DNA of 64,000 nt from Candidatus Zixiibacteriota bacterium. GTDB taxonomy: Bacteria; Zixibacteria; MSB-5A5; GN15; FEB-12. The first letter of the stretch is position 1; every line of letters starts with the position of its first letter. The notes beneath the pieces were generated by a model, which saw only the letters and a program-made list of their open reading frames with translations, ran no database searches and was not told where the DNA came from. Positions 13,610-56,684 of this stretch are shown here, piece after piece. The translations under genes were made by a program, and so were the position numbers. The stretch covers positions 62,001 to 126,000 of the forward strand of contig JAJRSF010000038.1 of the NCBI GenBank assembly GCA_024278935.1. The letters run 5' to 3'.

Positions 13610-13736
13610 TATTTTTCGGAAGAAAACATAGCTCTGATTGTATCAACATCAGAAGTGTAATTGACTATGTAATTCGGCTTTAGACAAAATCGGTCGGATA
13701 TGAGTCTAATTTGTATAAGATATTGGAGGTTTGACC

Positions 13737-15089
13737 ATGAAATATTTTCTCACTTGTTGTTTGATTGTTATTGCCGTCTGTTCAGTTGTAGCTGATGAAA
13801 TAGCCGTGACAATTTATAATTCCAACCTGGGTGTTGTCTCAGAAACACGAAGTATGGAATTTGAAAAAGGAACCAATCGGATTGCTTTCACTGATGTAGC
13901 CTCTGCGATTGATGCATCCTCGGTGCGGTTTGAAATTATCGACTCAAAAAAGCATCTTTCGATTTTAGAGCAGAACTACGCATATGATTTAGTAAATTCA
14001 TATCAGATGTATCAAAAATATATTGATAAAACTATTGAACTGATTGATAAAAACGGTAATATTTTTTAGGGAATATTATTAGCATCAGACCGTGATGCGG
14101 TTACACTTTTGGACAAATCGGGAAGAGTTAAAATCTTATTGATGGCTCAGATTTCAGAAGTGAATTTTCCTGTTTTGCCCGAAGGACTTATTACCAGACC
14201 TACCTTGTTTTGGAAATATGCCTCTGACTTTAAAGGGAAAACAGATTGTAATATAAGCTACCAAACATCGGGTATGAACTGGACTGCCGAGTATGTTGGG
14301 CTTATAAGTGCCGATGATAAAGAACTTGATATTAGTGGTTGGGCGTCAATCAATAATCAGTCTGGCAAAACTTATACCGATGCCACCCTTAAATTGATTG
14401 CGGGTGATATTAACAGAGCAACACAGGAAATTCGTGGCGGACGAACATATAAAGCAATGACTGCCTCTATGGATTTTAAATCAAAAGGCTTTGAAGAAAA
14501 ATCATTCTTTGAATACCATATGTATACCCTTCCACGAAAAGCAACTTTGGCAAATAAAGAGAACAAACAAATCTCACTTTTTGAACCGGCTCAAACAAAA
14601 GCAGAAAAAATATTTTTATACAAACCGGATTTTAATCCGAAAAAAGTCGAAGTTGCTCTCAAGTTTAAAAATTCAAAAGAATTTGGACTTGGTATGCCTC
14701 TTCCGGCAGGACGGTTCCGTCTCTTTAAAGCAGATGATGATGGCAGTAAAATTCTTTTGGGCGAAGATAAAATTGACCACACTCCAAAGGATGAAAAAGT
14801 CAGAATCAAAGTTGGCTATGCATTTGATTTGACCCCTGAATATACAATAGCCAACATGAAACGAATTAGTTCGCAAGTTGAAGAGCAGGATTTTGAAATC
14901 ACTCTCAAAAACCATAAAGATGAAAATGTGACTATTGAAATTGAGAAAAAGTTATATGGATTTTGGGAAATAATTGAAGCAGATTTTGAATTTGACAAAA
15001 AAGATGCTAATACGATTAAATTTAAGGCAAATATAGCAAAAAACGGCTCAAAAACCCTTAAATTCAAGGTACGGTTTGATCACAGATAG
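13737..15089 (+). pseudogene. DUF4139 domain protein gene with one in-frame TAG
   Basis: The ATG at 13737 follows GGAGGT with ideal spacing. The protein has a signal peptide (MKYFLTCCLIVIAVCSVVA) and then EIAVTIYNSNLGVVSETRSM, typical of DUF4139 proteins, which are exported beta-rich proteins of unknown role. At codon 111 (14067-14069) a TAG interrupts the frame; the same frame continues directly with GILLASDRDAVTLLDKSGRV and runs to 15089, including the family segment SYQTSGMNWTAEYVG. No insertion or deletion can remove the stop, because the frame is the same on both sides. It is either a nonsense mutation, a sequencing substitution or true readthrough. Total length without the stop would be 449 residues. 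Confidence 0.8.
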
Positions 15090-15170: not shown

Positions 15171-16565
15171 TTGAAATTATTAAAAAACATAGCAATTATA
15201 ATACTTTTATTAGCGTTGTTGCCTCTTTCAAGTATGGCGGGACGTGAAAAACCCAAAAAGAAATTATCAGCAGGTGCCTATCTTTCAACAGTTAAAATTG
15301 AAATTGTATCAGGTGACCATAAACGTTTTAAAACTGCCATAAAATATTTAGAAGATCTTGTTTATTGGTCTGGACCACATGCCGAGGCATTGTTTTGGAT
15401 GAATCAGATCGAAGTTGATTATATTGAAACAACTGCTGATCCGGTTTTGAAAAGACCTCACATTGAACGTTTTGTTGCCTACGTAGATTCTCTAGAAATT
15501 TGTTGTGATAAAGACAACGAAGATGTAAAGAAGAAATACAAAAAGAAATGTGATGAATATGTAGAAAAATCAGATTCGTTGATCATTAAGTTTTGGCGTG
15601 ATTTCTACAATAATGGTATCAACCTGATGAACGATAATCTTGCTCCTATTCAGGAAGATATTAAACTCGAAACAGATTCTGCCGTAATAGAACGATTCAA
15701 AGAAGATTTACAAGCCAACGTAGATTCTATTGTTGCAAATTTTGAACTCTGTTTGATTCTTGATAAAACAGATGTTAGAGCATATAACGCATTTGGTGCT
15801 TTATATGATAAATTGGAACTCCCTGAAAAATCTATTGAATGGCGTGTAAAAGGACTCGAATTTACCGAAGATAAAGTAAGTATGCTCCAAACAATTGCGT
15901 ATAATTATATTGCACTTGGTGACTACGGTGGTGCTATTCCATATATGAGAGACTATCTAGTGCTAGCCCCGGAAGATTTACTCACTTTGGGTAACCTTGC
16001 TATTTGTTTTAATAATCAAAAGATGCTTGACTCATCATTTGCTGTCTATCTGAGAATCTTAGATGTTGATTCAACTAATTCGGATGCTCTCAGTTCTATT
16101 GGTCATTACTATCGACAACGTTCTCAAGCTGCTGCTGATTCAGCAAGAGCATACCAAGAGGCAGACAATGAGACAGCTAAAAAGGAATGGTCTGCTACTA
16201 AAGAAGCTTATGTCGATTCATTTTTAGTTTATTATAAAAGAGTTCTGTTAACAAATCCTGAAAACGAACAGGTTCAATTTTTATATGCGACATATAATTA
16301 TTTCAGACATAATTGGGAAATAGCAATTACAGGATTTTCAGCTGCCACTGAATTAAACCCGTCTGAAAAAGATTACTGGCGCTATCTAGGTGATGCCTAT
16401 ATCCAGACAAAAGATTTTACAAATTCAGCAGCTTCATATGAAAAATATATTGCTATTGATGCCACTGATAAAGCTGTTTGGGAACAGTTAGTCAGTTTAT
16501 ATGCTGAATTAAAGAAACCTGCAGATAAAGCTCGCGCTCAAAAAGAATTAGACGCATTAAAGTAA
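15171..16565 (+). CDS. Exported TPR-repeat protein
   Basis: 464 residues from a TTG start at 15171, chosen because AAGGAG sits about 10 bases upstream and it gives a clean signal peptide (MKLLKNIAIIILLLALLPLSSMAG). The C-terminal two thirds hold tetratricopeptide repeats, for example SIEWRVKGLEFTEDKVSMLQTIAYNYIALGDYGGAI in pieces, ENEQVQFLYATYNYFRHNWEIAI and DYWRYLGDAYIQTKDFTNSA. TPR arrays are protein-binding scaffolds; a periplasmic scaffold role is inferred. It lies between the DUF4139 gene and priA and has its own terminator at 16586-16614. Confidence 0.82.
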   Translation: MKLLKNIAIIILLLALLPLSSMAGREKPKKKLSAGAYLSTVKIEIVSGDHKRFKTAIKYLEDLVYWSGPHAEALFWMNQIEVDYIETTADPVLKRPHIERFVAYVDSLEICCDKDNEDVKKKYKKKCDEYVEKSDSLIIKFWRDFYNNGINLMNDNLAPIQEDIKLETDSAVIERFKEDLQANVDSIVANFELCLILDKTDVRAYNAFGALYDKLELPEKSIEWRVKGLEFTEDKVSMLQTIAYNYIALGDYGGAIPYMRDYLVLAPEDLLTLGNLAICFNNQKMLDSSFAVYLRILDVDSTNSDALSSIGHYYRQRSQAAADSARAYQEADNETAKKEWSATKEAYVDSFLVYYKRVLLTNPENEQVQFLYATYNYFRHNWEIAITGFSAATELNPSEKDYWRYLGDAYIQTKDFTNSAASYEKYIAIDATDKAVWEQLVSLYAELKKPADKARAQKELDALK

Positions 16566-16585
16566 TAAATTATTTATTTGAGATT

Positions 16586-16614
16586 AAAGCGACAGGTAGC
16601 TATCTGTCGCTTTT
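16586..16614 (+). terminator. Rho-independent terminator after the TPR gene
   Basis: AAAGCGACAG (16586-16595), an 8-base loop, CTGTCGCTTT (16604-16613), followed by a T-rich run. Confidence 0.8.
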
Positions 16615-16623
16615 ACTTTTTAT

Positions 16624-19004
16624 ATGCCAAAATATGCCAATGTCGCTATAAGCGGACCATTACGAAAATCTTTCAGATATAAAGTTCCTGATAATCTAGG
16701 GAAGTTATATTCGGGGCAGCGTCTGTTGGTGCCATTTGGGAATTCCAAAAAATAGGCTTCTACATAGGGGAATCTTCATTTGCTCCGGGAATACGATATA
16801 AAAATATCGTTTCTATCCTCGACGACCAATCATATTTCCCAACCGACTTATTCAAACTTATCCTCTGGATTTCCGATTACTATTTTGCCAATCCAGCCGA
16901 TTGTTTGCTGGCAGCTTTACCATCCGCTTTTAAAAAACGAAAGTCATCACAGTTTTTTTGGACAACTGCACCATGCGAGATTCCCGATAAAATTCTGAGA
17001 TATTTTAAACCGGGACATAAACTTTCTACACAAGTCATACAAGATATTCATCTGCTGGGGAAAACGCTTTTTAAAAAACTTATCAAAGATGGGTCTGTTG
17101 TTGAAAAGTGGAATGAAGATTCCCTAGAACGTCGAACTCGTATCGCAGGATACAAAATTGAATCGATTGATACATGGGATATCTATTTTCATGAGCGACA
17201 ATTTCAGGTTGAAATTTTTGATGGTATCAAATCTCGTTCAGAGCTGATTCAAAAGGGATGGACAGATTACCAACTGAAAAAAGCGGTCGATAATTCAGTG
17301 TTGATTCCTATTTACGATGATGCCAATAAAGAACCGCTCGATTTTATTAAAGCTAAAGAGAACCTTGCCCAGATAAATTTAACCGACAATCAAAAAGATG
17401 TTGTCTCAGAATTAACAAAAAAATTAGCTGAAGGTTTCTCTACATCGCTTCTCCATGGTGTCACCGGTTCAGGGAAAACTATCGTTTATTGTTATCTCTG
17501 TCAGGAGATATTAAAAAGTGAAAAATCAGCCCTTATACTAACTCCAGAGATTGCTCTTACATCGACGACCCTTGCATACTTTAGAGGTTTTTTTGGTGAC
17601 AAAGTAACCGTGATACATTCTGCGATGACTGAAAAAGAACGGCTTGAAAGTTGGAATGGTATCAGACAGGGGAGATATAAAATTGTTGTTGGACCTCGCT
17701 CGGCTCTGTTTGCTCCGATTGAAAACCTTGGGCTGATAATTGTCGATGAAGAACATGATAGTTCTTACAAACAGGATGACCCCGCTCCACGGTTCCATGG
17801 CCGTGACTCAGCAATTATGCGTGCCAAGATAAATAATATTCCTGTTCTGCTTGGTTCAGCGTCGCCATCGGTTGAGTCTTATCATAACGCTAAAACAGGT
17901 CGGTATTCATTGCTGGAACTTACCGAACGCCCGGGCAATGCTGTACTTCCGATTGTGCATGTTGTTGATATGCGGACTGACCGTTTGCGAGGAGACCTTC
18001 CGTATATTTCGTACACTCTCAAAAAATCTGTCGAAGCTAAAATTAAAAAAGATGAACAGGTTATACTCTTTTTAAATCGTCGAGGGCATTCACCTCAGAT
18101 GAAATGTATGGAATGTGGTCATGTGCCAGAATGTCCGAATTGTAAATTGCGTTTGACCTATCATAAAAAAGGTACAAAGTTGACTTGTCACTATTGTGGA
18201 TTTATCACAGCAGTCATAGAAAATTGTGAAAAATGTAATGCGACTGATTTTTATTTTATGGGTGTTGGTACTCAAAAAGTCGAAGGGAATATCCCTCGTT
18301 TGTTTGAGGGTGCCAAGCCGATACGGATGGATTCCGATTCTGCCGATGGGCGGAAAAAAGCGTACGAAATTCTAACTCACTTTGCTGAGAAAAAATCGAA
18401 TCTACTCCTCGGTACTCAAATGGTAACTAAAGGACTCGATATGCCGGGCGTGACCTTGGTCGGGGTACTCTCTGCCGATGCGTCGCTAGACATGCCGGAC
18501 TTTCGAGCATCGGAAAAAGCATTCGCAAGACTCCTCCAGGTTTCAGGACGAAGCGGTCGGGCTGAAAAAGCTGGCGAGGTTATCATCCAGACATTTAACC
18601 CGGAGAACGAAGTTATCCAAGATGCTGCCCGACAGGACTACACAGGTTTTTTCACTCGTGTGATTAAAGAGAGAGAAGAACTATGGTACCCACCATTTTC
18701 ACGAGTCGTTAATTTTACATTGTCATCGGAAAAAGAGATGCTTCTTGAAAAAGAAACACTTCTGTTTAGAGAAAAACTTTTGCATAAGATTAAAACTAAT
18801 AATTTGAAAGTGCAATTACTCGGACCGACACCATGCCCAATTTATTTTTTACGGAATAGATACAGGCGCCATCTTTTTATTAAAACTAATCAGGTTATCA
18901 ATTTTACAAAGATGCTTACATCGTGGGAAGATATCGAACCACGTTTCACATTGCCCGCTACACTCAGAATCAATGTCGATGTTGACCCTGATGACATGAT
19001 GTAG
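16624..19004 (+). CDS. priA: Primosomal replication protein N' (PriA helicase), with a frameshift at A6
   Basis: PriA restarts stalled replication forks as a 3'-5' DNA helicase. The ATG at 16624 gives 43 residues (MPKYANVAISGPLRKSFRYK..., the PriA 3'-DNA-binding domain) and then meets TAG at 16753 straight after six A (16747-16752). Shifting back by one base, or adding one A, continues without a break as IGFYIGESSFAPGIRYKNIV into the rest of the protein, about 793 residues in all, normal for PriA. Later marks are the Walker A LLHGVTGSGKTIVYCYL, the DEEHDSSYKQ motif II, eight zinc-binding Cys (CMECGHVPECPNC and CHYCGFITAVIENCEKC) and GTQMVTKGLDMPGVTLVGV. A sequencing undercall in the A run is most likely; a programmed slip at AAAAAATAG is possible. 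Confidence 0.92.
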
Positions 19005-41673: not shown

Positions 41674-42597
41674 ATGAAAAAAATCACATTTTTAACTCTG
41701 ATGGCAGCTTGTTTGGCAGTAATAGGTATGGTTGGTTGTGGATCAGATTCAGACCCAACTGCATCAAACCTCATTGTTGGCGATACTTCGTCGGAAACAT
41801 TTCAATTTGTATCTGATTCTATTGGCTATATGTCACAAGATATGGCAGGGAATGGTTTGGATTTATCGTTTGAGCTTTTAGATCTTCAGTTTCCGTCATC
41901 ATCAACATCTAAAATCGGTCAGCCAAATAAGGCAGCGGGCGATACTGTGATTGTTGTCACAAACCAATATACATATTCTAATGGGTGGCATATTTTTGAT
42001 TTTCGGGCGACATTTATTGACTTTGACGATACTACAATCGTTGAGGGAATTGATTCAATTCAAACACTTATAAATAATGAACCGGTACAAAATCCTGATA
42101 CGGTTGATATAAATGGATTAAAAGTTAGAGCTCAATATGCTTTTGACAATAATAATTTTGGTTCAGGAGTAGGGCATCAGTCATTTGATTTAACGGCAAC
42201 TTCGTTTGATTCTTTGGGTGTTGTTACAATAAACGGAATTACTCATGATACTTTAACAGCACATTTTATTGAATCACTAGATTCATGTAATTTAGATATG
42301 AATAATACTCTTTCGATAAATAATGTAACGTTCCAGTTTGATGTAGGCGAAGAATGCCCAACCTCGGGTTCAATCGTTGCCAATCAAAATATTTCACTTA
42401 GCTGTATTGGCAGTGGAGCCTCTCATCTTGATTCATTAAATATTGATGGAAGTTGGACAGTGACGGTAACATTTAATGGTGCTACAGAAACGATATCATT
42501 TACCGATGGTACGACAACTTGGACCGTGACCGAAGATTGCGCTCCTGGTACAGTAGGAGCAGCGATGACTGCTTTTTATTACAAAGAGCAAAACTAA
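41674..42597 (+). CDS. Exported lipoprotein of unknown function
   Basis: 307 residues from the ATG at 41674 (AAAGGAGAAATT upstream). The signal peptide MKKITFLTLMAACLAVIGMV ends at a lipobox MVGC. The mature part is Thr/Asp/Ser-rich and beta-like, for example IDFDDTTIVEGIDSIQTLIN and, near the end, NGATETISFTDGTTTWTVTED. I recognise no family. It is divergent from the metal operon, 220 bases from it, and closed by a terminator at 42618-42648. Confidence 0.78.
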   Translation: MKKITFLTLMAACLAVIGMVGCGSDSDPTASNLIVGDTSSETFQFVSDSIGYMSQDMAGNGLDLSFELLDLQFPSSSTSKIGQPNKAAGDTVIVVTNQYTYSNGWHIFDFRATFIDFDDTTIVEGIDSIQTLINNEPVQNPDTVDINGLKVRAQYAFDNNNFGSGVGHQSFDLTATSFDSLGVVTINGITHDTLTAHFIESLDSCNLDMNNTLSINNVTFQFDVGEECPTSGSIVANQNISLSCIGSGASHLDSLNIDGSWTVTVTFNGATETISFTDGTTTWTVTEDCAPGTVGAAMTAFYYKEQN

Positions 42598-42617
42598 AAT
42601 CTTGTAGTAATCTGATT

Positions 42618-42648
42618 AAGCGGAAGATAAATTGTCTTCCGCTTTTTT
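42618..42648 (+). terminator. Rho-independent terminator after the lipoprotein gene
   Basis: AAGCGGAAGA (42618-42627), loop TAAATTG, TCTTCCGCTT (42635-42644), with T continuing. Confidence 0.9.
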
Positions 42649-42683
42649 ATTGCATAAAAAATCGCCGATATATCTTTAATTTC

Positions 42684-42714
42684 TTGACAAATCGCCGATA
42701 AAAACTGTTATTAT
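42684..42714 (+). promoter_or_regulatory. Probable promoter of tRNA-Ser
   Basis: TTGACA (42684-42689) and a TTATTA/TATTAT -10 (42708-42714), 18-19 bases apart, about 20 bases before the tRNA. The 11-base string AATCGCCGATA occurs just before and just after the -35. Confidence 0.55.
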
Positions 42715-42734
42715 CGCTTGTCTCTACAAACTCC

Positions 42735-42819
42735 GGAGGAGTGGCAGAGTGGTCGAATGCGGCGGTCTTGAAAACCGTTGTGCAGTAATGTACCGTGGGT
42801 TCGAATCCTACCTCCTCCG
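42735..42819 (+). tRNA. tRNA-Ser (anticodon TGA), integration site of the island
   Basis: The acceptor stem GGAGGAG (42735-42741) pairs with CTCCTCC (42812-42818), followed by discriminator G; CCA is not encoded. The anticodon stem GCGGT/ACCGT encloses CTTGAAA, giving TGA. There is a long variable arm as expected for serine and GGTTCGAATCC in the T arm. The integrase gene begins 115 bases downstream in the same direction, the classic layout of an element inserted at a tRNA 3' end. Confidence 0.95.
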
Positions 42820-42892
42820 CTTTAATTCCATTTAAAATTTTATCTTACTCCTTGACAACAACTTACGTAGTTGCTATCTTCCTTGTGTGTAG

Positions 42893-42914
42893 TTTGTGCC
42901 ATATTTGTGCCACG
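42893..42914 (+). repeat. Paired GTGCCA sites next to the integrase (left end of island)
   Basis: Two tandem TTTGTGCCA units 11 bases apart. A similar pair with TTTCTGCCA units and the same spacing is at 57500-57521, near the other end of the accessory region; 18 of 22 positions agree. They could be arm-type binding sites of the recombinase. Confidence 0.5.
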
Positions 42915-42933
42915 TCAAATCAAAGGAAAAATC

Positions 42934-44034
42934 ATGGCAAGGATTTATAAGCGAGAAAAAAATTGGTATATTGATTATTATTTTAAAGGGAGAAGAATTC
43001 GAACCCGAGTTGGTACTTCTAAAAAATTTGCTGAGTTAACTTTAAAAGATATCGAACTAAAGATAGCTCGAGATGAGCTAGGTTTTTTGAAAACAGATAT
43101 CGCTATCAATTCTCTTGTTGATCTATTTCTTGCATATAATAAAACTAACAATAGAGCTAGTACTACAAAAAGGTATAAAGCTATCATGAATCATTTCAAA
43201 GAATTTATCCATGATAAAAAACCTGATCTGGTTATGATTTCTCAAATAAATGAAGGAATAATAGAAGAGTATAAGTCCTTCCGTAAAAATAGTCTCATTA
43301 ACCCGAATGGACATAAAGTTAAATCTAAAAAAGATATAACAGCTTCAACCAGAAAGGGAGCTCGTTCAAGGACTATCAATATTGAAGTAGATGGTTTTAA
43401 GTATATGTTAAATCTTGCTGTCAGGTGGGATTATATCAAAGATAACCCTATAAAAAATGTTAAATCTCTAAAGGGAGACGATAAAAAACCATTTAGATTT
43501 CTTACTGTTGAGGAAATTAAACTATTCCTTGAAAATACACCATCACACCTGTATCAAATATATTTTACTTTCTTACATACAGGCATGCGAAAAGCTGAAT
43601 TAGAAAATCTCACATGGGGAGATATCGATTTTAAACAGAGAAAAATATTTATACGTTCTAAAATAGATTGGAATCCTAAAACAGGTGCTCGTGAAATTCC
43701 AATTGATGATGAATTGTATACTGTTTTAAGGGATATAAAGCCAAAGCAATCTAAAGATTCAAAAAAGAAAACTGTTTTTAATCTAAAACATTCAGGACAT
43801 TCTCATAATATTCTCAGGCGTGAGTTAATTAAAATTGCTATAAAAGCTGAAATTGAAAATTTTACTCAAGTACATTCTTTGAGACATACGTTTGCAAGTC
43901 ATCTTATTATGAATGGTGTTGATCTTCCCACAGTACAAAAGTTACTCGGTCATTCTGATATTCAAACCACGATGATTTATGCTCACTTAGCCCCAAATCA
44001 CTTAGTCGAAAGTGTGAATAAGTTAGGGTATTGA
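42934..44034 (+). CDS. Tyrosine recombinase/integrase
   Basis: 366 residues from the ATG at 42934 (AAAGGA upstream). The N-terminus has an Arg/Lys-rich AP2-like arm-binding segment ([20 protein letters not shown]), followed by a SAM-like core-binding domain and the catalytic domain. The active-site residues are Arg219 in HTGMRKAEL, His314 and Arg317 in [11 protein letters not shown], His340 in [10 protein letters not shown], and the nucleophile Tyr349 in MIYAHL. It lies directly after tRNA-Ser and is expected to insert and excise the element at that gene. Confidence 0.94.
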
Positions 44035-44594
44035 TTTTTCAACTTTTATATAAGTATCAAAAAGTGGCTGAGAACCCATAGTTCGGAGTCTGATTTGGAT
44101 TCATTTTTACATTGGTAGATTAATAAAAATGGCTAGATAATAAAGCGGGGTCGACCTCACTCTCAGCATCCTTGTGTTGTGTTCGAAAATTGTATTTCTA
44201 ACAAATATAAGTATAAAAAAGGATATCACCTAAAACAGATAAATTTTGAAACACTCAAGTTTTAAAGGGATGAATTTCAACTAATTTCTATCTGTCTTGA
44301 TTGAAGAATTATAATCCAAAACGATTTATATTCATGTATTCATCCTGGATGACAACAGTAAATAATTTTTTAACAGTTTGTAGAACTCAATTTTGTTATT
44401 AAATATAATACTCGTAGTGACAGATTTGTCACTCTTGTGCTGTATTATATAGTTGATAGATTATGTCGAGGAAGTATAGGTTTATTTCTCCAAAAGCAAT
44501 AGATACAATTTTGCACCCTTGATTAAATGGAATGATTAGTGCATATTCAATGCGATAAGAAAATAAATAAACAATAAAAAGATTTAATGGAATT
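44035..44594. other. 560-base AT-rich gap inside the island
   Basis: No gene recognised. It has an 18-base palindrome at 44416-44433 and scattered short inverted repeats near 44070-44160 (CTGAGA..TCTCAG). Nothing here looks like an RNA gene. Confidence 0.5.
44416..44433. promoter_or_regulatory. Palindrome upstream of the CD-NTase gene
   Basis: AGTGACA, GATT, TGTCACT: a perfect inverted repeat 160 bases before the CD-NTase start. It could be an operator; no regulator gene is visible in the island. Confidence 0.4.
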
Positions 44595-45470
44595 ATGCCA
44601 AGAACAATAGAAGAAGGTTTTAGAGATTTTAATGATACGTTGAAACTTGTTAATACAGAGTCATTAGCTGTAAAAAGACATAGAGCATCAATAAAAGCTT
44701 GTCTTGAGAATAAGTTTGGTTTAAAAAGTATTTTTAGAATAGGATCCATTGGAAATGGTACAAATGTAAACGGTTATAGCGATACAGATTATTTTGCAAG
44801 TATTCCTACAGATAACTTAACTGAAAATTCAACTAATACTCTGGTGAAAGTAAAAAAAGCTTTACAAGAGCGGTTTACTAATACAGAAGGAATAAGTATA
44901 AGTGGTCCTGCTGTTGTTATACCATTTGGAAAAGCAATGTCAGAGACAACAGAAATTATTCCGGTAGACTATATCAAAACTACAAATTTAATGAATATTT
45001 ACGATATGCCAGATGGTCAAGGTGGATGGATGCGTTCAAGTCCAAAAACTCATAACAAATATGTAACCGATATTAACAGTAAGTTAAGTTATAAGGTTAA
45101 ACCACTAGTAAGATTTATTAAAGCTTGGAAATTTTACTGTAATGTACCAATTGTATCATTTTATTTAGAAATGAGAGTTGCTAAATTTGCCTCTCAAGAA
45201 GATTAAATAGTATATTCTATTGATATTAAAAGTATTTTAAAAATGTTATTAGATTCAGAATTAGCAACAATGAATGATCCATCTAAGGTCTCAGGTAGCA
45301 TCCAAGCCTGCAAATCGGATGCAGATAAAGACGATGCTCTATCTAAATTAAAGACAGCTTATACGCGAGCTTGTAAAGCTCGACAATGCGAATCCAATGA
45401 TGACATTAAAGAAGCGTTTGCTTGGTGGGATTTATTATTTAACGATAATTTTGTATCGTACTATTATTAG
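44595..45470 (+). pseudogene. CD-NTase (SMODS-type cyclic oligonucleotide synthase) with one in-frame TAA
   Basis: The ATG at 44595 opens a frame of 203 codons up to TAA at 45204-45206; the same frame goes on with IVYSIDIKSILKMLLDSELA and ends at 45470, total about 291 positions, a normal CD-NTase size. The nucleotidyltransferase site is plain: RIGSIGNGTNVNGYSDTDYF with Gly50-Ser51 and Asp63-x-Asp65, and the third acidic residue Asp125 in IIPVDYI. The C-terminal helical part holds RACKARQCESNDDIKEAFAW, typical of this family. CD-NTases sense phage infection and make cyclic nucleotides that activate an effector (CBASS). Here the effector would be the SLATT protein eight bases downstream. The stop makes activity doubtful unless it is read through or is a sequence error. 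Confidence 0.82.
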
Positions 45471-45478
45471 GTTAAGTT

Positions 45479-45979
45479 ATGGTATCAATAAATAAAATAA
45501 CTGATGAAGCTAAAAGAATTGAAGAGGATAGTTTACATTCTTCTAAAGGGCATTTTTACGCTGCACAATTTTGGTCAAAATTTCATTATTCTATTGGCGT
45601 ACCAACAGTTATTATGTCTGCTATAGCTGGGGCATCTGCATTGTCTCAATTTGATAATCACAATGTTATAGCAGGGGTATTAGCAATTATTGTTGCTACA
45701 TTAACCGCTCTTAATACATTTATGAATCCTTTATAAAAATCAAAAATTCATCATGAAGCTGGTAATAGCTATAATGAACTAAGAAATAAAGCTAGGATAT
45801 TTTATAACATAGAAATTGAAAGTGATGCCGAACTAAAAAAGTACATTGATGAAATTAAAATACTAAATGATTTAAGAAGTACACTTAATAATGAGTCTGC
45901 TCAAATTCCTAAATGGGCATTTATAAAAGCTCGTAAGGGTATTAAAGAGGGAGAAAGTGAATTTAAAGTTGATCAGTGA
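45479..45979 (+). pseudogene. SLATT-domain two-TM effector with one in-frame TAA
   Basis: The ATG at 45479 gives 85 residues, then TAA at 45734-45736. The same frame continues with KSKIHHEAGNSYNELRNKAR to TGA at 45977, 165 residues plus the stop, as expected for SLATT proteins. Two adjacent hydrophobic segments (GVPTVIMSAIAGASALSQF and HNVIAGVLAIIVATLTALNT) are followed by the conserved FMNP...H..AG..Y..LRN.AR region and a helical tail. SLATT domains associate with SMODS nucleotidyltransferases and are thought to form a pore when bound by the cyclic nucleotide. The stop falls just after the second membrane segment. Confidence 0.8.
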
Positions 45980-46033
45980 AAATTTGCTTATAATATTAGA
46001 TAGACAACCATTTGGAAGGATTGAATTCTAAAC

Positions 46034-46393
46034 ATGGCAGGTGAAAGAGTTGCTAGGATATTAAAATCTAAAACAGAATTAACGGATAAAGAGGTTGAAT
46101 CTTTATCCGATTCTGAAGGTTGGAAATTAATTTATAGCATTAAATCCAGAAAAGAAAGCTTCTCAATTAAAGAAGACCAAATATGTTTTACTGGTTTTTC
46201 TCCTAATGAAAAAAAAGAATTACAAATGTTAGCTAAAAAGTACAACCTATATGTTGTCAAATCCGTAACAAGATTACTTAAATATTTGTGTTGTGGTGAA
46301 AATGCTGGACCAGTAAAAATTATGAAGGCTAAAGATCAAGGTGCGATTATAATTGACAAGAATGGTTTACAGAATATTAAGATTTCTGAATAA
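46034..46393 (+). CDS. BRCT domain protein of the defence island
   Basis: 119 residues. Residues about 49-115 form one BRCT domain: QICFTGFSPNEKKELQMLAK, then YVVKSVTRLLKYLCCGENAG and PVKIMKAKDQGAIIIDKNGL, as in the BRCT of DNA ligase LigA and replication factor C. The first 48 residues are Lys/Glu-rich and helical. BRCT domains bind DNA ends or phosphoproteins. It stands 54 bases after the SLATT gene and 41 bases before the unknown gene, so the four genes could be one transcript; its link with the defence genes is an inference. Confidence 0.8.
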   Translation: MAGERVARILKSKTELTDKEVESLSDSEGWKLIYSIKSRKESFSIKEDQICFTGFSPNEKKELQMLAKKYNLYVVKSVTRLLKYLCCGENAGPVKIMKAKDQGAIIIDKNGLQNIKISE

Positions 46394-46434
46394 ATTAAAC
46401 TACCTAAATTTAACACATAGGAACTAATTGAAAG

Positions 46435-47622
46435 TTGGGTAATAATAAAACAAAGTTCTTTATAAGTCTTATTCAAGAGATATTTAGTGACTCAATCATT
46501 TCTTGCAAGCTTAATGTCAATGCATCTAATAATGTGATTTCTGCTCTTTATAATGATCAAAATTCTATTTTTTTCAATAATTTTATTAGTAGATTAAAGA
46601 GACTTGAGAATGTGTATCATAACCATGACTCTCAACAGAAATTAATAGATATAATTAAACGTTTATTAGATTCATCAACATGGGAAGGGGCATTTGCAGA
46701 GTTAGTCACTCTCGACTATTTTCATTCTAAATTTCCTAGAAATAATAACTTGATGTATAAGCCAATAGAAATAAATAATATTGCTAGTAGTGACTCGCTA
46801 CTACTTAAAAATATTAAAGATGAAAAAAGAGAGGTCGAATTAGACGGTTACTTTCCTGATTGCAATGTATTTTTTGATACGAAAATATTAAGAGATAATG
46901 TAGATCATATTTTACTAAAGATATATAAAGAAGTGCAATCGGAATTTTCTCAAAAACAAGTTCTAATTGTCAGTGAATATAATAAAGATACTGATTGGGA
47001 TGAATTGTCAACCAATAGAACAAAAATAAAGAAAGAGTTGATAGATGCGATTAATCAGAAAACCGAACTTACATATTTAAAGTCAAAGGTAGTATCACAT
47101 TTAACACATCGGTTAAAATGGGGTGGAGGTATTCTAATTAGTGCGTCAACTTATTCTCCGTTTAAGCATGCTCAGGAATTTTATCTAAATGTATTTAAAG
47201 ATTGTCATCAGTTTATTAAAAATAAACCAATTTTTCTTGTCTATGTTAACTTCCCTTGGTACAATAATACAATTACTGATTTTAGAGAGGATAATAAAAC
47301 ATTTTATAGAAGTGTTGCGAGGCGTGTCTTTTGTGGAGCAAAAGAAAATTCACAAAATATTAAAGGATATTTAAAAAATATTACTGATTTTAAGTATGAT
47401 TATAACATACCACTATCAGAGGTATCTAAATGTTTGTCGGGGATTCTATTCCTTGAAGATAAAAGTATAATGTCTGAAAATGCTAGCGAACATAATATCT
47501 TAAGTTACTTCTATTCAAATCCAAATGCGCATAATAAACTTACGGAATCTATGTTCTTTGACTATATGTCTTGTGATCTTCAATTAGACACTATTGATAC
47601 GTTTGAATATGATAATTATTAG
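46435..47622 (+). CDS. Unknown protein with a possible PD-(D/E)XK nuclease motif
   Basis: 395 residues from a TTG start at 46435 (AGGAAC upstream); no ATG gives a full-length frame. I do not recognise the family. Residues near 85-95 read TWEGAFAELVTLDYF and then VELDGYFPDCNVFFDTKILR near 138-157, an arrangement (Glu, Asp, then Asp-x-Lys) compatible with a PD-(D/E)XK nuclease fold. The middle (KSKVVSHLTHRLKWGGGILIS) and end have no known motif. It is followed after 71 bases by the DEAD/DEAH helicase start, so it may be the nuclease partner of a helicase that has since been cut short. Confidence 0.7.
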   Translation: MGNNKTKFFISLIQEIFSDSIISCKLNVNASNNVISALYNDQNSIFFNNFISRLKRLENVYHNHDSQQKLIDIIKRLLDSSTWEGAFAELVTLDYFHSKFPRNNNLMYKPIEINNIASSDSLLLKNIKDEKREVELDGYFPDCNVFFDTKILRDNVDHILLKIYKEVQSEFSQKQVLIVSEYNKDTDWDELSTNRTKIKKELIDAINQKTELTYLKSKVVSHLTHRLKWGGGILISASTYSPFKHAQEFYLNVFKDCHQFIKNKPIFLVYVNFPWYNNTITDFREDNKTFYRSVARRVFCGAKENSQNIKGYLKNITDFKYDYNIPLSEVSKCLSGILFLEDKSIMSENASEHNILSYFYSNPNAHNKLTESMFFDYMSCDLQLDTIDTFEYDNY

Positions 47623-47693
47623 ATAGACGATGATAACTTGATTAACATGTGGATTGCGTGTGAATTAGAAATATTTTATATTAAGAGAGATTA

Positions 47694-50600
47694 ATGACTT
47701 ATTTTGAGAATAATTATTTAAAATTCAAAATTCCAATTTCTGAAGAATCTTCTGTTGGATTTAGGTTGTCTCAAATTGGTGCCATACATTCAATAGGTGC
47801 TCATTTTTGTCAGCATAAGAATCCAGCTATAGTGACAATGCCAACAGGAACAGGAAAAACAGCAGTTTTGGTTGCCGCTTGTTTTCTTCTACGAGCAAAA
47901 AGAGTATTAGTTATAACTCCTAGTCGTTTAGTCCGAGAACAAATTGCGGAAGACTTTAAAGATTTACATACTCTAAAAAAAATTGGTAGTTTACCAGAGG
48001 AAATTTCTCTTCCAAGAGTAAAAATAATAAAAAATAGAATTAAAACTCTAGAAGAGTGGCAAAGCTTAGAGGATAATGAATTAAATTATCAAGGGCAAGT
48101 TTCAAGAGATAATTCTACTATTGGACTATCTAACGCTAATCAAGATGATAATAGTGTCTCAGCATATACGGGTCAACATACAGAAATGTTCTTATTAAAT
48201 TCTATACCATTTAAAGGACTTAATGGAGTAAATGTTACCCTTTTATATTCTGGAAATGTGTCACAAACAATTAGTAAAGATAATCGTGAAGCTCAAACAT
48301 CAATGGTTGGATTAGGCTTTGATCTTGATTATGGTGGAGAATTTATTGTTATCAATCATAATACTACAGTATCATTAGATGATGATAAATACTATTTTGG
48401 AGGTATGATTGAGTTACTCCCGGATGGATTAACTTCTGATAACGAAAATAAATTTAAACCTTCTAGTGGTAATCAATGGATAGTTATTCAACATCTAGAT
48501 ACAATAAGTAGGTCAGGTTTAAATGATTTTGTTTATATTACTGGTTGGACAATTATTAAGGAAAATGGTGTCACATATAAATATGGAGATCCTACTTATG
48601 ACGATGCAATACGAAGTGCCACTAGTTATGTTTTGCATTGGGATGATTTAGTTGGTTTCTGTGTAGCAGGTGGAGGACAATTGTATCCAACAAAATGGGA
48701 TATCAGGAAAATAGAATTTTCTGATGACAAGTATATAGAATATATTTATTATCAAGATACAGAACCATTAAGGGTCTTCAGTTTTACAACTCCACAATAT
48801 TCTATAGAAGAATATACAGTTTTTACATACCCATTAAAAATTTCAGCGAGTAATGGTTATTCTATTGATTTCGTTTTAAAAGATAGAACCGATTATGTTG
48901 CATTTTTTGATGGTCTCAGTTATGATAATTATCAAAGTAAGCGACTAGATTCCTTATATACCTCTTTTAATTCGAATATCATTTCAGTCGTGGGATTAGG
49001 TTACTCGCTCTTACCTGGCATTCTTGATGAAAAATTGATACTTCAGAATATTACGAATCTCGATAGTGACAATCTAAATCCACTTCCTCCAATTCACTTT
49101 GACTATGTTCAAAATTCTTCGGAAATCAACTTTGGTTCTATTGAAAGGATTCATTACCCCGATGGTGGCACTAAAGAAATAACTTATAAAGCTTTAGAAG
49201 CAGATAGTATTTATACAAAATTAAATACAACTCTTGAAAATAATTATGTAGCACATTCATTTTCTCGAAATGCAATTGTTTCAAAATTTAAAGTTAGCTC
49301 ATCAGTTTATAAATATGAACTATCTACCTGGAATGGATATTGGGATAAGCATGTTTTACCAAACATTACAGACGATGTTGCTGATTTTGTAAATGTAGCT
49401 GGAGAAAACTGGGTTGCCTTTTATAATAAATCAGACGATATTTTTTATAATTTTACAATGATGGGTGGGTATTGGCATCAAGATACAATTCCAATGAGTT
49501 GGACTCCAAACAATAAAGTAAAAATTTATGCTGGAAATGATTTTGTTATACTTATAGATTATAAGGTTCCTTCTTCAACTCCTGAAAATCCTTTAATTCA
49601 AAAGGCTTATTTCTATAAAAGAACTTCAACAGGTTGGACAGAAAATGAAATATTTAATTTTGGTGGTTATTCAAAACGTTTAAATGGTGTAAAACTATCA
49701 ACAGATTTATATGCAATTCAAATTTGTGAATTAGACGCACTAAATAAAAATACTTTGTATTACGGAAAGTATGATTACGCAACTGATAATCTGATTAATA
49801 CTTGGACAACTCCAATACAATGGAATATGTATATGGCTGTTGGGAATAATTTTGTCACATATTCTAACCAAGTTGATGCTGGTGGAAATGTATATGTTGC
49901 TGACTTTAATGGAACTGAATTTAAAACTACCCTATTGGCTTCTCATAAGACAAGTGGTCTAATAGTTTGTAACTCAATGATCATACATGCAGTTGCTAAT
50001 GGCAATATTGTTGAGTATTGGATGAGATATCCTTCTGCACAACCTGGAAGTGAGAGGTATTGGCTTAATCGTGGGACAATTTCCAATGTAAGTTATGATC
50101 TAGCAAATCCACCTAGGTTAACTCAATCAGGTGGAAATAGCTTTGCTTTGCAATACAAAAATCAAACTACGAGTCAGTTTGATATTGCTATTTATTCATG
50201 GGATGGAATGGAATTTCTAGAGAATTCTCTACTAACAAATGTCGGAAATACAAATTCAGAAATCACTATGACTCCAGAAATGTGTGTTATAAATTACAAT
50301 AATGGAAAAATATACGCATCAAGACGTACTTCCAGTACAAGTTGGGATTCACCAGCTGTTGAATTAAATACAGGTATAAATTTTCATAAAGGGTATTGGA
50401 CTGATCCAGATCCTCACGATTTTCCACCAATACCAAGATATAATTCAACCAAATCTGACCCACATTTTCAAGGAGCTAAAAATACAGTTGTGGTATGCGG
50501 GGAAACAGCACAAGGTGCTAATCATGAAACTCAAACGGTTATACCTTCTGATCCGATTAGAATAGTTTATAGTTATAATCAGTTGAATCAGGATTGGGAT

Positions 50601-53600
50601 ACTCTTAATGTTAGCCAATATACTGATTTAACTCAAAATACAGAGTCAGAGCCATTTGTTTTTAATGACAGAGTATATATTAAAGCTGCAAATAATCGTA
50701 TGTCTTTATTTCAAAGATACAAACAAACAATGGTAGGTAAGCCATCAATTGCTGTAGTGAATCAAACTAAAGCTATACGAGGATTAAATGCACCAGACGA
50801 TGAATCTGTTGTGAGAGATTTTTCTTTTAATGGATGTCTTCTTGACTATAGTAGTAATACACCTCGCTTTGCGAGATCATCTACTTCATTACCTCGTTTT
50901 GAGAATGATGTTACAGATGGATATAAATTAACACATTTTTATAACGATATGTCTGCATCTCATACAGAATTTAGTTCATTAGGTAGCATATTAACTTTAC
51001 CTAATGATCTTGATAACAATAAGTACGCATATTTATATGATGGAAAACCATTTTTATCTATAACTTTTGATGATAAAACACAAGAAGGTGGATCTGATTG
51101 TTTAGATACGGTAAAAACATTTTATCGTATGCAAGAGCTTGACTATGACGATAAAGTTAGATTGAGATTTCTGATTGATTCTGTACATACTCGCTCTGAC
51201 GGATTTGCGTCTGATATTAAATCTTTCTATTTAGAGGAATCGGGTCAACAATTTATGACCAAAAATTTTAGGACCAGTTTAGGTGATACTCTAATAGATA
51301 GTACGCATTATGCTCACTTGGATGATCCTTTGATTAAAAGTGATAATGCATTAAATCTTGTTGATGATTCTTGGTTAATTTCAGATTCAAATGGTGTGAG
51401 GACAACATTAGATCGTAGTTCTTCAATATTTGAAAAACATAGTACTTGGCAATTGTCAAAAGATATCATTTATACAGATTATGATGATATGAATTCTACC
51501 ATCTCTGCATTTGAATTTTTAGAAAATGGTGCTTTTGATGCAAATGATAACCTCATTGCATGGCGTAATAGAGGTGGTGATACTTCTTCAATAAAATTAG
51601 ATAATTCTGGTTTTTATAGTGTTGCTAAAGCTTTAAACAGTAGTCCCGAAGAGTTCTTTGTACAAGATTTTGAACAAGGAGATGTTTGGGATGGTTGGGA
51701 TTTGAACCTCTGGAGAACAAATGTTACTCTTGAAACTGATCCTAATTATGTTTTTACAGGCGAAACAAGTTATAAAATAGTAGATAATGAAACTTCAAGT
51801 GAACGAAACTGGGGAGCTATCCGAACTATCTCTGTTGATAGTTTAAAGGGAGACAAGTATTATTTTTCTTGTTGGTTAAAATCAAATCATGATATTCGTA
51901 TTTATGCTAAGGGAACAGATTCCTATAATGATTATACAACAGTTACTAATGGATATAAGTTTATTGATTTTAACGGTTTAAGTGGTTCATGGGAAAAAAT
52001 TGAGGGTGTCTTTGATATATCTGAATTCCAAGCAGATCCAGATTTTGAATGGTTATCAATACAATTGGTTATGCAAGATGGTGATAATACTAATTATGCT
52101 TATTTTGATGATTTTAGATTCCATCCTGAAGATGCTATTATTACAACTACTACTTATTCAAGTGACAAGAATTTAGTTTTATCAAACTCAGATATAAATA
52201 ATATCCCTACTAAGAAAGAGTATAATAACTTTTCAAGATGTACTCAGATACTAAATTATAGGAATGAAATTATAGAGAAAAGAGAATCTCATACAAAAGA
52301 AATACACAATAATTCTCTTGATGTAAGAAAATATGATTATTCTAGCTCTTCTTTTTATGAATAAGAAGATCAGATTTTTTATGACCAAATAATTAATTAT
52401 CAATTAAGTATTTCTATGCATAATGTTCTAGCTGGTACAGGAAAGTCCATAATTTATGTAAATAATGTTATTTATGATTTAATTGAAGCGACAACAGGCA
52501 ATTTAAGTAAATCAGGTACAATACATGTCAATAATGGGGATGTTGTAAAAGTACGAGTTCAAGATTCTTTTGAATATGTTCCATCATCAAATTATCACTC
52601 TACAATTCAAGCAAGAGTTGATTCATATATTGATCAAGATCCACTTGAATACAGTTTTGAAAAAACGATCTCCTTCTCTGGAGTAGGTACTGACTCAATG
52701 GTTGTAAAAACATTTATTGATGGGTTAGGTCGACCGATTCAGAGTCGTAGTTCAAGTTCTACAGGTACAGATAATGCAATTGTTTCTGGTGTAACCGATT
52801 ATGATGCATATGGTAGAGTACTTAGGAGATATAAATTATATTTAGATGAAAGTGGTACAACGCATGTTGATGATTTTGATCCAAAAGCTATTTCTATAGC
52901 TGAAATATATGCATACTATAATTCTTCAGGACCTGGATTAGATCATGGTGGTGTCCCTTATGCAGAGAATGAATATACAGGTGGTGTAAAATCTAAATTA
53001 GCACGATCAGCATCAGCCGGTTCTACTTGGGCACTAGATTCAGGGCATTAATCAGAGTTTATTTCTTATACTGATGCTCTTGCTGAAGAAATTGTTAGTA
53101 TCGTTTTTGACCAAGATTCTATACAAGTACTTTCAAAGACAGATAGGTGGGGTCGTTATGATAAGAAATATAGCTTCGTTAATGATGATTCATTATTTGC
53201 TATTGACCCTTCTAATCCATATGATTCAATACTTACTATAACATTTAATAATAAAAAGGGTCAAGTTGACTCTGTTTGTATTGATACCTCTGTTGTTCGA
53301 ACATCTAATACTCTTATTAAAATTCGTGAATACTCTTACAATGATCTTGGTCAACTTACCAATGAATGGCGAGTTGATTATGGTAATATTGAAATGTTAT
53401 ATGATCAAGCAGGCAACAAACGTTTTATGAGAAACGAAAAACGTATTGCTGAAGGAAAATTTGTGTATTTTAAATATGATAATCAAGGAAGACTAATAGA
53501 AGAAGGCACAACTGATCCTTCTGTTGTAGATTATTTTATTCAAACAAATGCTGATAATCCAGATTTTCCCGAAAGTGGTCAAAGTTATACATACACTCCT

Positions 53601-56600
53601 ACCTATAGAAATACATACGATTATATTCAACGGATAACAGGAACTGATACTTTAGAATGTAATTGTCCTGGACAACTTGTGAAATCTGAAGAAGTGGGTG
53701 GATATAATTATTATAAAGAGTTTTATACATTCCCAACAGATGATTCAGATCTGACTATCGTCAACTTACCTCAACCAGCGTCTGGATCTCCAACTCTTAA
53801 GGGAATTAAACATATTTATAATTCTATTGATGGTTCGACCGAATCACTAATACTTTACCCATATTGGCCAGCAACTACTGGTTACCGTAAATATGATTAC
53901 TCGTATTATAATAATGGTCAGCTAAAATCAATTGAAGCTGGTGATTTAGGACCATTGATCCCATTAGAACACACAACGTTTGTAGAATATGATTACAATA
54001 TTAATGGTTCTGTTGATAGAACACGTTATGGAGTTTACAAAAATGACTTATCAAGTTTATATGATACAACTCAAATCATAAATTATAGTTATGATACTCG
54101 TGGGATGTTGACAGGTATAGCTGATCCTTCTCAAGTGGTTCCTAAAAATACTGGATCGGGAGAAGATTCTCTTCACTTTGGTTTAACCATTGATTATATA
54201 AATGATGCGACTAATCAATATTTTAATGGTCGTGTTGCAAATATTAAAAGTAGTAGTTCAAGTAGTTTAAGTGGTTCGACAGTAGATACAAATAACTACG
54301 ATTATAATTATAATGATTTGGGATGGTTAACTAAAGCAGATAACTCATTGGGTGCATTAAATGATCATGAATACTATTATAATCGCATGGGCAATAGAAT
54401 CGGATTCTCAAAAGGAAAAGATTTTGATTGTTTATTCCAAGATTTTGAAAAAGGTGATGGATGGGATAATTGGAATCTTTACTTAAATAGTCCCTTAATT
54501 AGTCTTTCAGACAACGATAAATACTCAGGTTTATCTAGTTATAGGCTTGATAAACCTGACCCGGGGAAAACATGGGGTGCTACTAGAACTGTTCCAATAG
54601 ATATTACTAAAGAGACCGTCTATTATTTCTCTGCGATGGTAAAATCGAATGCGATTGCACAAATTTATTGTTACGTAAAAGATGTAAACGAACAGAATTG
54701 TTTGCCTGATGATTATTTATATTTAAGTTTTGATAATCTCAGCGAGACGAATTGGCAGAAAATTGAAGGTACTTTTGATCTTAGCAATTACAGTAACTGT
54801 GTGGATCATGTTGAGATTAGACTAATGCTTTTTTCTGGGGAGAGTTTAGGCTATATTCTATATGATGATTTTGAATTTATTCCAAATAGTAATCCTTCTG
54901 GATTCGTATCACAAACTTATAATTATGATAAAACCAACCCAGGTTCTTCAAAGTTACTTAATTTTACTGGTATGGCTTATGACTACACCTATGACGAAAT
55001 TGGAAATATGACTTCAGATTTATCTAGGTATATAAACGAGATGGACTATGATTACCGTAATTTGATGAATTACTCTAAATTTAGATCAGTTGCCAGTGCT
55101 TCCTATTATGATAATTTACGTATGTCATATGATGAGACCGGCATGAGAATATCCAAAAAATTCACGTATAAGTATTGGTATGAATGTGAAATTCCTATTG
55201 AGCCTCCGATTAAAATTCTTTCAATGGGGACAGAATCATTAAGTTCCTCTCAATTGGGTGGTGGAACTGTACAAGCATTAGGTTCTGGCGGTGGCGGAGG
55301 AGGTCAACAATGTCTCGGTACGTATGTAGCATCGACTTATTATTTATATGATAATGGTGTTTTACTTGCTACATTTGATGCGAGTGATAATATTATTGAG
55401 ACATTTGTGAATTCTCAAGAAGGTATGGTAGCTTCTTATAAAAAAAATGATGACGATAAATTATACTATTTTATAAGAGACCAAATTGGTTCCCCTCGAG
55501 CAATTCTGCATTCTACGCCAACAGGCTACAATAAGGCAATAGTGGTTCAAACGATCAACTATCATCCTTTTGGAGCTGTTTCGGTTGCTATTGGTTCTTA
55601 TGACACTCCATACAAGTTTACTGGGAAAGAACATGACTTACAAGGTAACTTTGAGTTTACATATTTTGGGTCAAGGTATTACAACCCAGAGACTGGTTAT
55701 TTTAGTTCTATAGATAAAGCTGGTCAATTCACCAATGGCTATCTCTATGGTGGAAACAATCCAACTTTAGGACGTGACCCAGATGGAAACTTATTCTTGT
55801 TAGCTGCTCCATTTTTAATGGGAATGGCATTTTCTGGTGCAACGTATGTAGCTATAACACATTCTGATTCATTTGATGCTGAATTTAAATGGAATAAGAT
55901 GTTTGGACATATGTTAGTTGGTGGCTTAGCAGGTTCCTTTATGAATTTTGGAAATGCTCAAAATTGGGCAAGCAATACTATTACAGGTGCTGCTCAAGCT
56001 TTTGTAAGCGGAGGGGCTCATAATATAATTGATGGAAATAATTTCATTGATGGAGCAATGTCTTCAGCAATCTCAGGAGCTGTTTTTGGGTTGGTTTCAA
56101 GTGAACAATATCAGAATTGGGGGGCAGGAGATGGTTGGGATACAAACAAAGAAGTTATGACATCAATTCTTAATACTCTTGGGCCTGTAGGGGGACCAGG
56201 ACCTGCTATGAGATATTATATAAAAAGGATGAATTATGATATTCCTGCTGATAAAATATCTGAAGGTATAATAATAAAAGAAGGTAATCCAAACATCGTT
56301 TATGGAATGGTTGATCCTAATGGAACTACTGAGCTTGAAATAAAAATAGATTATGCAGCAATAAAAAGAAGTGAAGTATATATGGATAAAGTTGATAAAA
56401 TGATGAATACAATAGATCATGAATATTATCATTATAAAAATGACTATGCTTTATTTCAAGATAAACCTGGAAAACCTTATTTAGCACAAAAAGATAATTT
56501 TGAACATAATGATGCATATAAATTTAGTTTAGAACAAACTAAATACAATCATATAAGTTTACCTACTTTTGCTAAAGACCGTATGTCTAGAGGGCTTTGG

Positions 56601-56684
56601 AATGTAAAGTATCCAAAATTTTTCCAATGGAGAAGATTATATATGGGTGGGCATGGGATCTATCAAGGATTATTAACATTTTAA
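47694..56684 (+). pseudogene. Chimeric gene: DEAD/DEAH helicase N-terminus fused to an RHS/YD-repeat toxin, with two in-frame TAA codons
   Basis: One reading frame of about 2,997 codons. Residues 1 to ~127 are a helicase start: FRLSQIGAIHSIGAHFCQ, motif I MPTGTGKTAVLV, and RVLVITPSRLVREQIAEDF. After about 48,075 the sequence switches to a different protein (QHTEMFLLNSIPFKGLNGVN, then SMVGLGFDLDYGG), the start of an RHS-type shell. It has a beta-propeller-like region (about 49.3-50.7 kb), two CBM-like domains that begin QDFE.GD.WD.W (near 51.7 and 54.4 kb), YD repeats and the RHS core end YLYGGNNPTLGRDPDGN. TAA codons at 52362-52364 and 53049-53051 interrupt the frame, which continues the same on both sides. 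The last ~298 residues after the DPDG motif form the variable toxin domain with HEYYH at 56418-56432, a zinc metallopeptidase-like motif. RHS proteins act in toxin delivery between bacteria. Confidence 0.75.

What the first reader, a model, noticed from the sequence alone, without database searches (positions are those of the whole stretch)
44595..45979. CBASS-like CD-NTase and SLATT effector pair, both carrying one in-frame TAA
The nucleotidyltransferase site (Gly-Ser, Asp63-x-Asp65, Asp125) and the two-TM SLATT effector form a short CBASS layout. In each gene a single TAA (45204, 45734) interrupts a frame that otherwise codes for the expected family sequence on both sides. Two neighbouring stops of the same kind in cooperating genes suggest joint loss of function, tolerated because effector and synthase are both off, or a shared cause such as a consensus error or suppression.
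Basis: partly seen in the sequence, partly recalled or inferred. Interest (0 to 1): 0.72.

Follow-up and report, generated by a model that had tools for sequence, protein, structure and literature searches.

The report
Broken anti-phage gene pair in island
Two neighbouring genes of a known type of bacterial anti-phage alarm are each interrupted by one stop codon, most likely because a decaying mobile island has lost them, and there is little sign that the bacterium reads the stop differently.

Summary
A CD-NTase (44595-45470) and a SLATT_4 effector (45479-45979) each carry one in-frame TAA (45204, 45734), with family sequence on both sides. In 81 of 81 homologous NTase loci, and in the 13 of these that match SLATT, the aligned frame has no stop. 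So both stops are lesions, not natural ends.

The pair lies in a tRNA-Ser-integrated island. A helicase nearby is cut off and fused to an RHS-repeat-like gene that has two in-frame TAAs. Two conserved genes outside the island carry in-frame TAG and TGA, so a TAA-specific cause is not needed. No suppressor tRNA was found among 39 typed of 41 tRNA loci; RF1 and RF2 are intact.

Best reading: recent nonsense pseudogenes in a decaying island (0.72). Assembly error (0.2) cannot be excluded without reads; recoding or read-through is unlikely (0.03). Nuance: close NTase relatives more often sit beside S_4TM than SLATT, so the pairing may be a mosaic. Ordinary; low interest.

The parts
42735..42820 (+). 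tRNA-Ser (anticodon TGA), integration site
   Evidence: ARAGORN and Rfam; blastn match to sister G059 stops at its end; its 3' end recurs downstream of the window
42871..44034 (+). tyrosine integrase
   Evidence: Pfam Phage_integrase E 2e-32; sister G058 has a homologue in two frames at the same tRNA
44595..45470 (+). CD-NTase (CBASS cyclase) pseudogene, in-frame TAA at 45204-45206
45204..45206 (+). in-frame TAA, codon 204 of the NTase
   Evidence: among 81 loci the column is most often Ser (31) or Thr (12)
45479..45979 (+). SLATT_4 effector pseudogene, in-frame TAA at 45734-45736
45734..45736 (+). in-frame TAA, codon 86 of the SLATT gene, by eye just after the second hydrophobic segment (no TM predictor was run)
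   Evidence: Glu in the three full-length homologues
46034..46393 (+). small BRCT-domain protein, uninterrupted
   Evidence: Pfam BRCT 26.1 bits, cut-off 21.3
46435..47622 (+). 395-aa protein of no known family, uninterrupted
   Evidence: no Pfam match above cut-off; one plasmid match at 29% over 64%
47694..48100 (+). first ~135 residues of a DEAD/DEAH helicase, cut off and fused in frame to the next gene (end approximate)
   Evidence: Pfam ResIII E 3.1e-12; in the 8 rows listed of 66 plasmid matches, helicases align to residue 142 at most; homology to the second RHS-like protein starts at residue 153
48150..56684 (+). RHS-repeat-like gene with two in-frame TAA (52362-52364, 53049-53051); name rests on weak Pfam matches
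   Evidence: RHS_repeat 16.7 bits, below cut-off; DUF6443 above cut-off

Best explanation
A type I-like CBASS unit (one CD-NTase plus one SLATT-type membrane effector) arrived on a tRNA-Ser-integrated island and has been inactivated by one nonsense mutation in each gene. The island fragment is decaying: a second, possibly defence-related cluster has lost most of its helicase through a deletion that fused it to an RHS-repeat-like gene. Intact, the unit would work like other CBASS: phage infection activates the NTase, it makes a cyclic nucleotide, and the effector damages the membrane (general CBASS knowledge, not tested here). As sequenced, the NTase stops before the last three helices of its fold and the effector loses its second half, so both should be non-functional. 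Shown: the stops, the family assignments, the uninterrupted homologues, the island setting. Inferred: that the mutations are real, that the island moved in and is decaying, and that the truncated products are inactive.
For: Family matches continue across both stops. 81 of 81 NTase loci and 13 of 13 SLATT matches have no stop in the aligned part. In the model of the 65%-identical homologue L151 (pLDDT 93.4) residue 204 lies in the loop before helices 207-220, 242-267 and 271-281, all of which would be lost. Island context: tRNA-Ser plus integrase, end of synteny, repeated tRNA 3' end, truncated helicase fused in frame, two further TAAs in the RHS-like gene where the aligned relatives have none. 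Rate: 2 accepted of 4 candidate in-frame stops in 92 conserved gene intervals (32,092 codons), against 2 in the 457 codons of the pair; P(2 or more) = 4.5e-4 at 2 per 30,000 codons. This excess fits relaxed selection better than uniform error.
Against: The same assembly has in-frame stops in conserved genes (a sucB-like E2 gene; the gene at 14067) and an apparent priA frameshift, so assembly errors may be common. No frameshift or second stop has accumulated in either CBASS gene, and the NTase's conserved columns are nearly intact (4 of 68 deviate against a median of 2), so if decay is real it is very recent. The rate test is post hoc, uses conserved genes as the yardstick, and the rest of the ~42 kb element was not tested gene by gene and would weaken it.
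Confidence: 0.72

Rival explanations
1. Assembly or consensus error: the population carries intact genes and one or both TAAs are wrong or minority calls in a 68-contig draft assembly.
For: Conserved genes of the same assembly and of its sister genomes also show candidate in-frame stops and frameshifts; the CBASS reading frames are otherwise well preserved.
Against: The density of stops in the pair is higher than in conserved genes (post hoc); nearby island genes carry independent damage such as the helicase fusion, which a point miscall does not produce.
Confidence: 0.2
2. The truncated or split products still work: the NTase N-terminal 203 residues, or N- and C-terminal pieces from re-initiation at ATG 45243, act with or without the effector's N-terminal half.
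For: The catalytic residues lie before the stop and an ATG follows 36 bases after it.
Against: Three C-terminal helices with conserved residues are lost; 81 of 81 homologues are uninterrupted. That no Shine-Dalgarno-like motif precedes ATG 45243 is a by-eye judgement.
Confidence: 0.05
3. TAA is decoded as an amino acid in this island or host (suppression or recoding), so both proteins are made in full.
For: Both interrupted frames end in another stop (TAG, TGA), and the interruptions in the pair and in the RHS-like gene are all four TAA.
Against: No TTA, CTA or TCA anticodon among 39 typed of 41 tRNA loci; RF1 and RF2 are present without internal stops; 27 of 50 listed window ORFs end in TAA, interrupted pieces included, and so does the island's BRCT gene; other interruptions in the genome are TAG and TGA; the homologous columns hold different residues, mostly Ser/Thr in one and Glu or others in the other.
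Confidence: 0.03

Closest known systems
CBASS CD-NTase family, PADLOC PDLC00776; nearest solved structure Pseudomonas aeruginosa CdnD (6p8u)
   Same: Full-length family match (E 6.7e-115); the model of the 65%-identical homologue L151 matches 6p8u with TM 0.82; active-site residues present
   Different: In-frame TAA at codon 204; L151 is only 24% identical to 6p8u over the structural alignment; no HORMA or TRIP13-like gene among the neighbours scanned
SLATT_4 two-TM CBASS effectors (NCBIfam NF033632, PADLOC PDLC00712)
   Same: Both pieces match the model in order; 44% identical to the effector at L160
   Different: In-frame TAA at codon 86; the SLATT relatives at L008, L009, L010 and L235 (4 of 4 looked at) sit upstream of a shorter 257-262-aa NTase, whereas here SLATT follows a 291-codon NTase
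NTase plus S_4TM CBASS units (e.g. L151, L152, L153)
   Same: NTases up to 65% identical to this one
   Different: Their effector is S_4TM. By tblastn, 49 of 81 loci match S_4TM queries, 13 of 81 match the window's SLATT, 1 of these both (L160), 20 neither; 8 of 8 first-downstream genes tested in Pfam are S_4TM. No S_4TM remnant was found in window 42001-49000 (best E 0.8)

Membership tests
Type I CBASS (cyclase plus effector) | CD-NTase with catalytic G-S ... D-x-D ... D | tested here: met
Type I CBASS (cyclase plus effector) | adjacent effector gene of a CBASS effector family | tested here: met
   SLATT_4, starting 8 bases after the NTase's final stop
Type I CBASS (cyclase plus effector) | both genes encode full-length proteins | tested here: not met
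   TAA at 45204 and 45734; 81 of 81 homologous NTases uninterrupted in the aligned part
Type I CBASS (cyclase plus effector) | no ancillary Cap2/Cap3/HORMA/TRIP13 genes alongside | tested here: met
   The four neighbours scanned are an integrase, a BRCT protein, an unassigned protein and a helicase piece; genes further away were not scanned against PADLOC
Type I CBASS (cyclase plus effector) | nucleotide synthesis and phage protection | not testable with these tools
   needs experiments
Stop-codon recoding (TAA as sense) | a tRNA that reads TAA | tested here: not met
   none in 39 typed of 41 tRNA loci; two cut by contig ends stay untyped; 150 of 233 first-look candidates were scored and the assembly is 95% complete, so a missed tRNA is possible
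Stop-codon recoding (TAA as sense) | altered or missing release factor | tested here: not met
   RF1 and RF2 above cut-off, no internal stop
Stop-codon recoding (TAA as sense) | TAA not used as terminator | tested here: not met
   27 of 50 window ORFs on a list made by hand end in TAA (four of the 27 are interrupted pieces)

The most novel reading that the evidence does not exclude
In-frame stops in this island, and perhaps in this bacterial genus at large, are read through at a useful rate (for example under stress or phage infection), so that a toxic defence pair is kept nearly silent until needed.
Probability: 0.02. Interest if true: 0.85.

Novelty: new member of a known kind. Interest (0 to 1): 0.15.

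Why it matters
It is a snapshot of a CBASS unit that seems to be being lost with its island, and a reminder that annotation of defence systems in draft assemblies should look through stops. The PADLOC web-server paper (PMC9252829, passages seen) already says that many putative defence genes are annotated as pseudogenes, from sequencing or assembly error or as remnants. If the stops were read through, that would be important, but the evidence points the other way.

Tried and rejected
Recoding and suppression: rejected as the main reading. Natural shorter proteins: rejected, 81 of 81 NTase homologues continue. Close relatives in the same phylum: the NTase search of 132 genomes found the own copy and one 23% match, the SLATT search the own copy and two 25% matches, so the mutations could not be dated on a tree. 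A first scan of genome contigs with the truncated protein alone found no relative; the alignment query found 100, of which 80 were kept. The phage collection gave one match at 23%. A codon-usage scan for interrupted genes had little power: the first threshold found 1 place in the 144 kb of own DNA, the relaxed one 11, catching the stops at 14067, 45734 and 53049 but missing those at 45204 and 52362; the other 8 places were not followed up. An internal deletion between two tandem CBASS units (as at L160) as the origin of the NTase-SLATT pairing was considered; no S_4TM remnant was found, so it stays open. Literature: three searches on CBASS with SLATT, S-4TM or premature stops (one paper listed each; 10 of 100 listed) and one on inactivated defence systems (4 listed) showed no title or abstract start on this pair; the library holds open-licence papers only, and only two papers were opened. 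PMC12657218 (passages seen) concerns S-2TM-beta effectors, which I take as a different family.

Full report
What is there. The window is contig C38, bases 62001-126000, of a 3.40-Mb, 68-contig draft genome rated 95.19% complete and 1.9% contaminated. At 44595-45470 lies a CD-NTase frame with one TAA at 45204, and at 45479-45979 a SLATT_4 effector frame with one TAA at 45734. With X at the stops the NTase matches PADLOC PDLC00776 over its whole length (E 6.7e-115) and the effector PDLC00712 (E 8.2e-61). NCBIfam SLATT_4 matches the two pieces separately and in order, the second below the whole-protein cut-off. Pfam gives SMODS for the NTase; for the effector SLATT_4 falls 0.7 bits short of the cut-off.

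Are these natural ends? No. A scan of genome contigs with alignment A3 gave 100 relatives, of which the best 80 were kept, and one more came from viral contigs. In 81 of 81 the aligned NTase has no stop; at the column of the TAA there is Ser in 31, Thr in 12, a gap in 8 and other residues in 30. Thirteen of the 81 loci also match the window's SLATT, none with a stop. In the alignment with three full-length SLATT proteins the stop column is Glu in all three; among the 13, of which 12 are only 25-32% identical, it is His 6, Arg 3 and Glu, Thr, Gln, Ala one each. In the Aeromonas plasmid homologue (L008) the SLATT gene is itself split into two overlapping frames while its NTase is annotated whole.

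What would be lost. AlphaFold2 on the uninterrupted 65%-identical homologue L151 gave a confident model (mean pLDDT 93.4) whose best PDB match is P. aeruginosa CdnD (6p8u, TM 0.82, 24% identity). Residue 204 is in a loop; helices 207-220, 242-267 and 271-281 come after it. The effector stop comes, by eye, just after the second hydrophobic segment and removes the C-terminal half, which has conserved columns. Loss of function is inferred, not shown.

The setting. A tRNA-Ser gene (42735-42820) is followed by a tyrosine integrase. In sister genome G059 the DNA match ends at the tRNA; in G058 it runs on to the end of a homologous integrase that lies in two frames, beyond which the fetched stretch holds other genes. 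The last 25 bases of the tRNA recur about 41.7 kb downstream, twice, at window-equivalent 84470 and 84562 with one and two mismatches, which marks a plausible element end. After the CBASS pair come a BRCT protein, a 395-aa unassigned protein, and a DEAD/DEAH helicase whose homology ends after roughly 125-142 residues and whose frame continues into an RHS-repeat-like gene. The second RHS-like gene of the island starts with what looks by eye like a signal peptide, which the first lacks. The first RHS-like gene has in-frame TAA at 52362 and 53049; the relatives aligned over these positions, in 5 of 53 other family genomes (not each covering both) and in a second own copy, have no stop inside.

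Is the genome unusual in its stops? I compared 478,353 bases of the own genome with samples of two sister genomes (357,903 and 410,698 bases). In 92 own gene intervals (32,092 codons) four candidate in-frame stops appeared. I accept two: TAG at window 14067, and TGA at L054:7337 late in a sucB-like E2 gene. I set aside two: position 42884 of the joined C38 string, matched only by a 127-aa ORF that I take as no gene, and L059:5539, which lies just upstream of an aligned Met. G058 showed four and G059 five candidates in 93 and 101 intervals, not judged one by one; frameshifts appeared in G058. The gene at 14067 has a match in 50 of the 53 other family genomes, and no listed match but the own one has a stop. 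By eye, priA of the own genome changes frame near 16,690-16,750. So interruptions occur outside the island, and all three stop codons occur among them taken together. That argues against a TAA-specific mechanism and leaves room for assembly errors. The pair's density (2 in 457 codons) exceeds the conserved-gene rate (P 4.5e-4), and 4 in about 4,300 codons of the island's left part gives P 2.3e-4, but both tests are post hoc and the second leaves out the island's untested right part.

Decoding machinery. Rfam found 41 tRNA loci in the own genome, from 150 scored of 233 candidates. ARAGORN typed 39; none has a TTA, CTA or TCA anticodon; the two untyped ones are cut by contig ends. RF1 and RF2 have no internal stop. 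TAA ends 27 of 50 window ORFs on a hand-made list that includes the interrupted pieces.

How fresh is the damage? At columns conserved in 90% or more of 37 close homologues the NTase deviates at 4 of 68 (median of the others 2; 5 of 37 deviate at least as much). At 95% it is 3 of 51, reached by 2 of 37; at 100% it is 1 of 36, reached by 10 of 37. Neither gene shows a frameshift. Any decay is therefore recent. SLATT was not tested this way.

Pairing. Of the 81 NTase loci, 49 match S_4TM queries, 13 the window's SLATT, one of them both (L160), and 20 neither; some loci are cut short by contig ends, and more distant SLATT proteins may have been missed. At L160 the order is NTase, S_4TM, second NTase, SLATT; the first NTase is 54% and the SLATT 44% identical to the window's; that SLATT had no Pfam match at 0.001. 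In the other 12 SLATT loci SLATT is upstream of the NTase. The window's order, NTase directly followed by SLATT, was not seen among these 81. Partner exchange or a deletion between two units could explain it; neither is shown.

Verdict. A real but ordinary case: a CBASS unit with a stop in each gene, most likely nonsense mutations in a decaying island, with consensus error as the main rival.

Noticed in passing
window 13731-15089: A gene conserved across the family is interrupted by in-frame TAG at 14067; none of the listed matches in 50 other genomes has a stop. I recall it as a DUF4139-type protein; no call names it.
   Followed up: yes
L054:7337 (own genome contig C9): In-frame TGA late in a sucB-like dihydrolipoyl succinyltransferase gene.
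   Followed up: partly
window about 16500-19004: priA appears frameshifted near 16,690-16,750; by eye the N-terminal part reads in another frame.
   Followed up: partly
window 47694-48150: A DEAD/DEAH helicase start is fused in frame to an RHS-repeat-like gene whose relative in the same island has a signal-peptide-like start.
   Followed up: partly
L160:1619-4988: Two CBASS units in tandem: NTase, S_4TM, second NTase, SLATT.
   Followed up: partly
L008:2974-3496: Aeromonas caviae plasmid SLATT gene is split into two overlapping frames while the adjacent NTase is annotated whole.
   Followed up: no
window 46435-47622: 395-aa protein without a known family between a BRCT protein and the helicase piece; possibly part of another defence system.
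   Followed up: partly
L097:15727 (sister genome G059): In-frame TAA in a gene 91.5% identical to an uninterrupted own gene; I recall the motif as sigma-factor-like.
   Followed up: no
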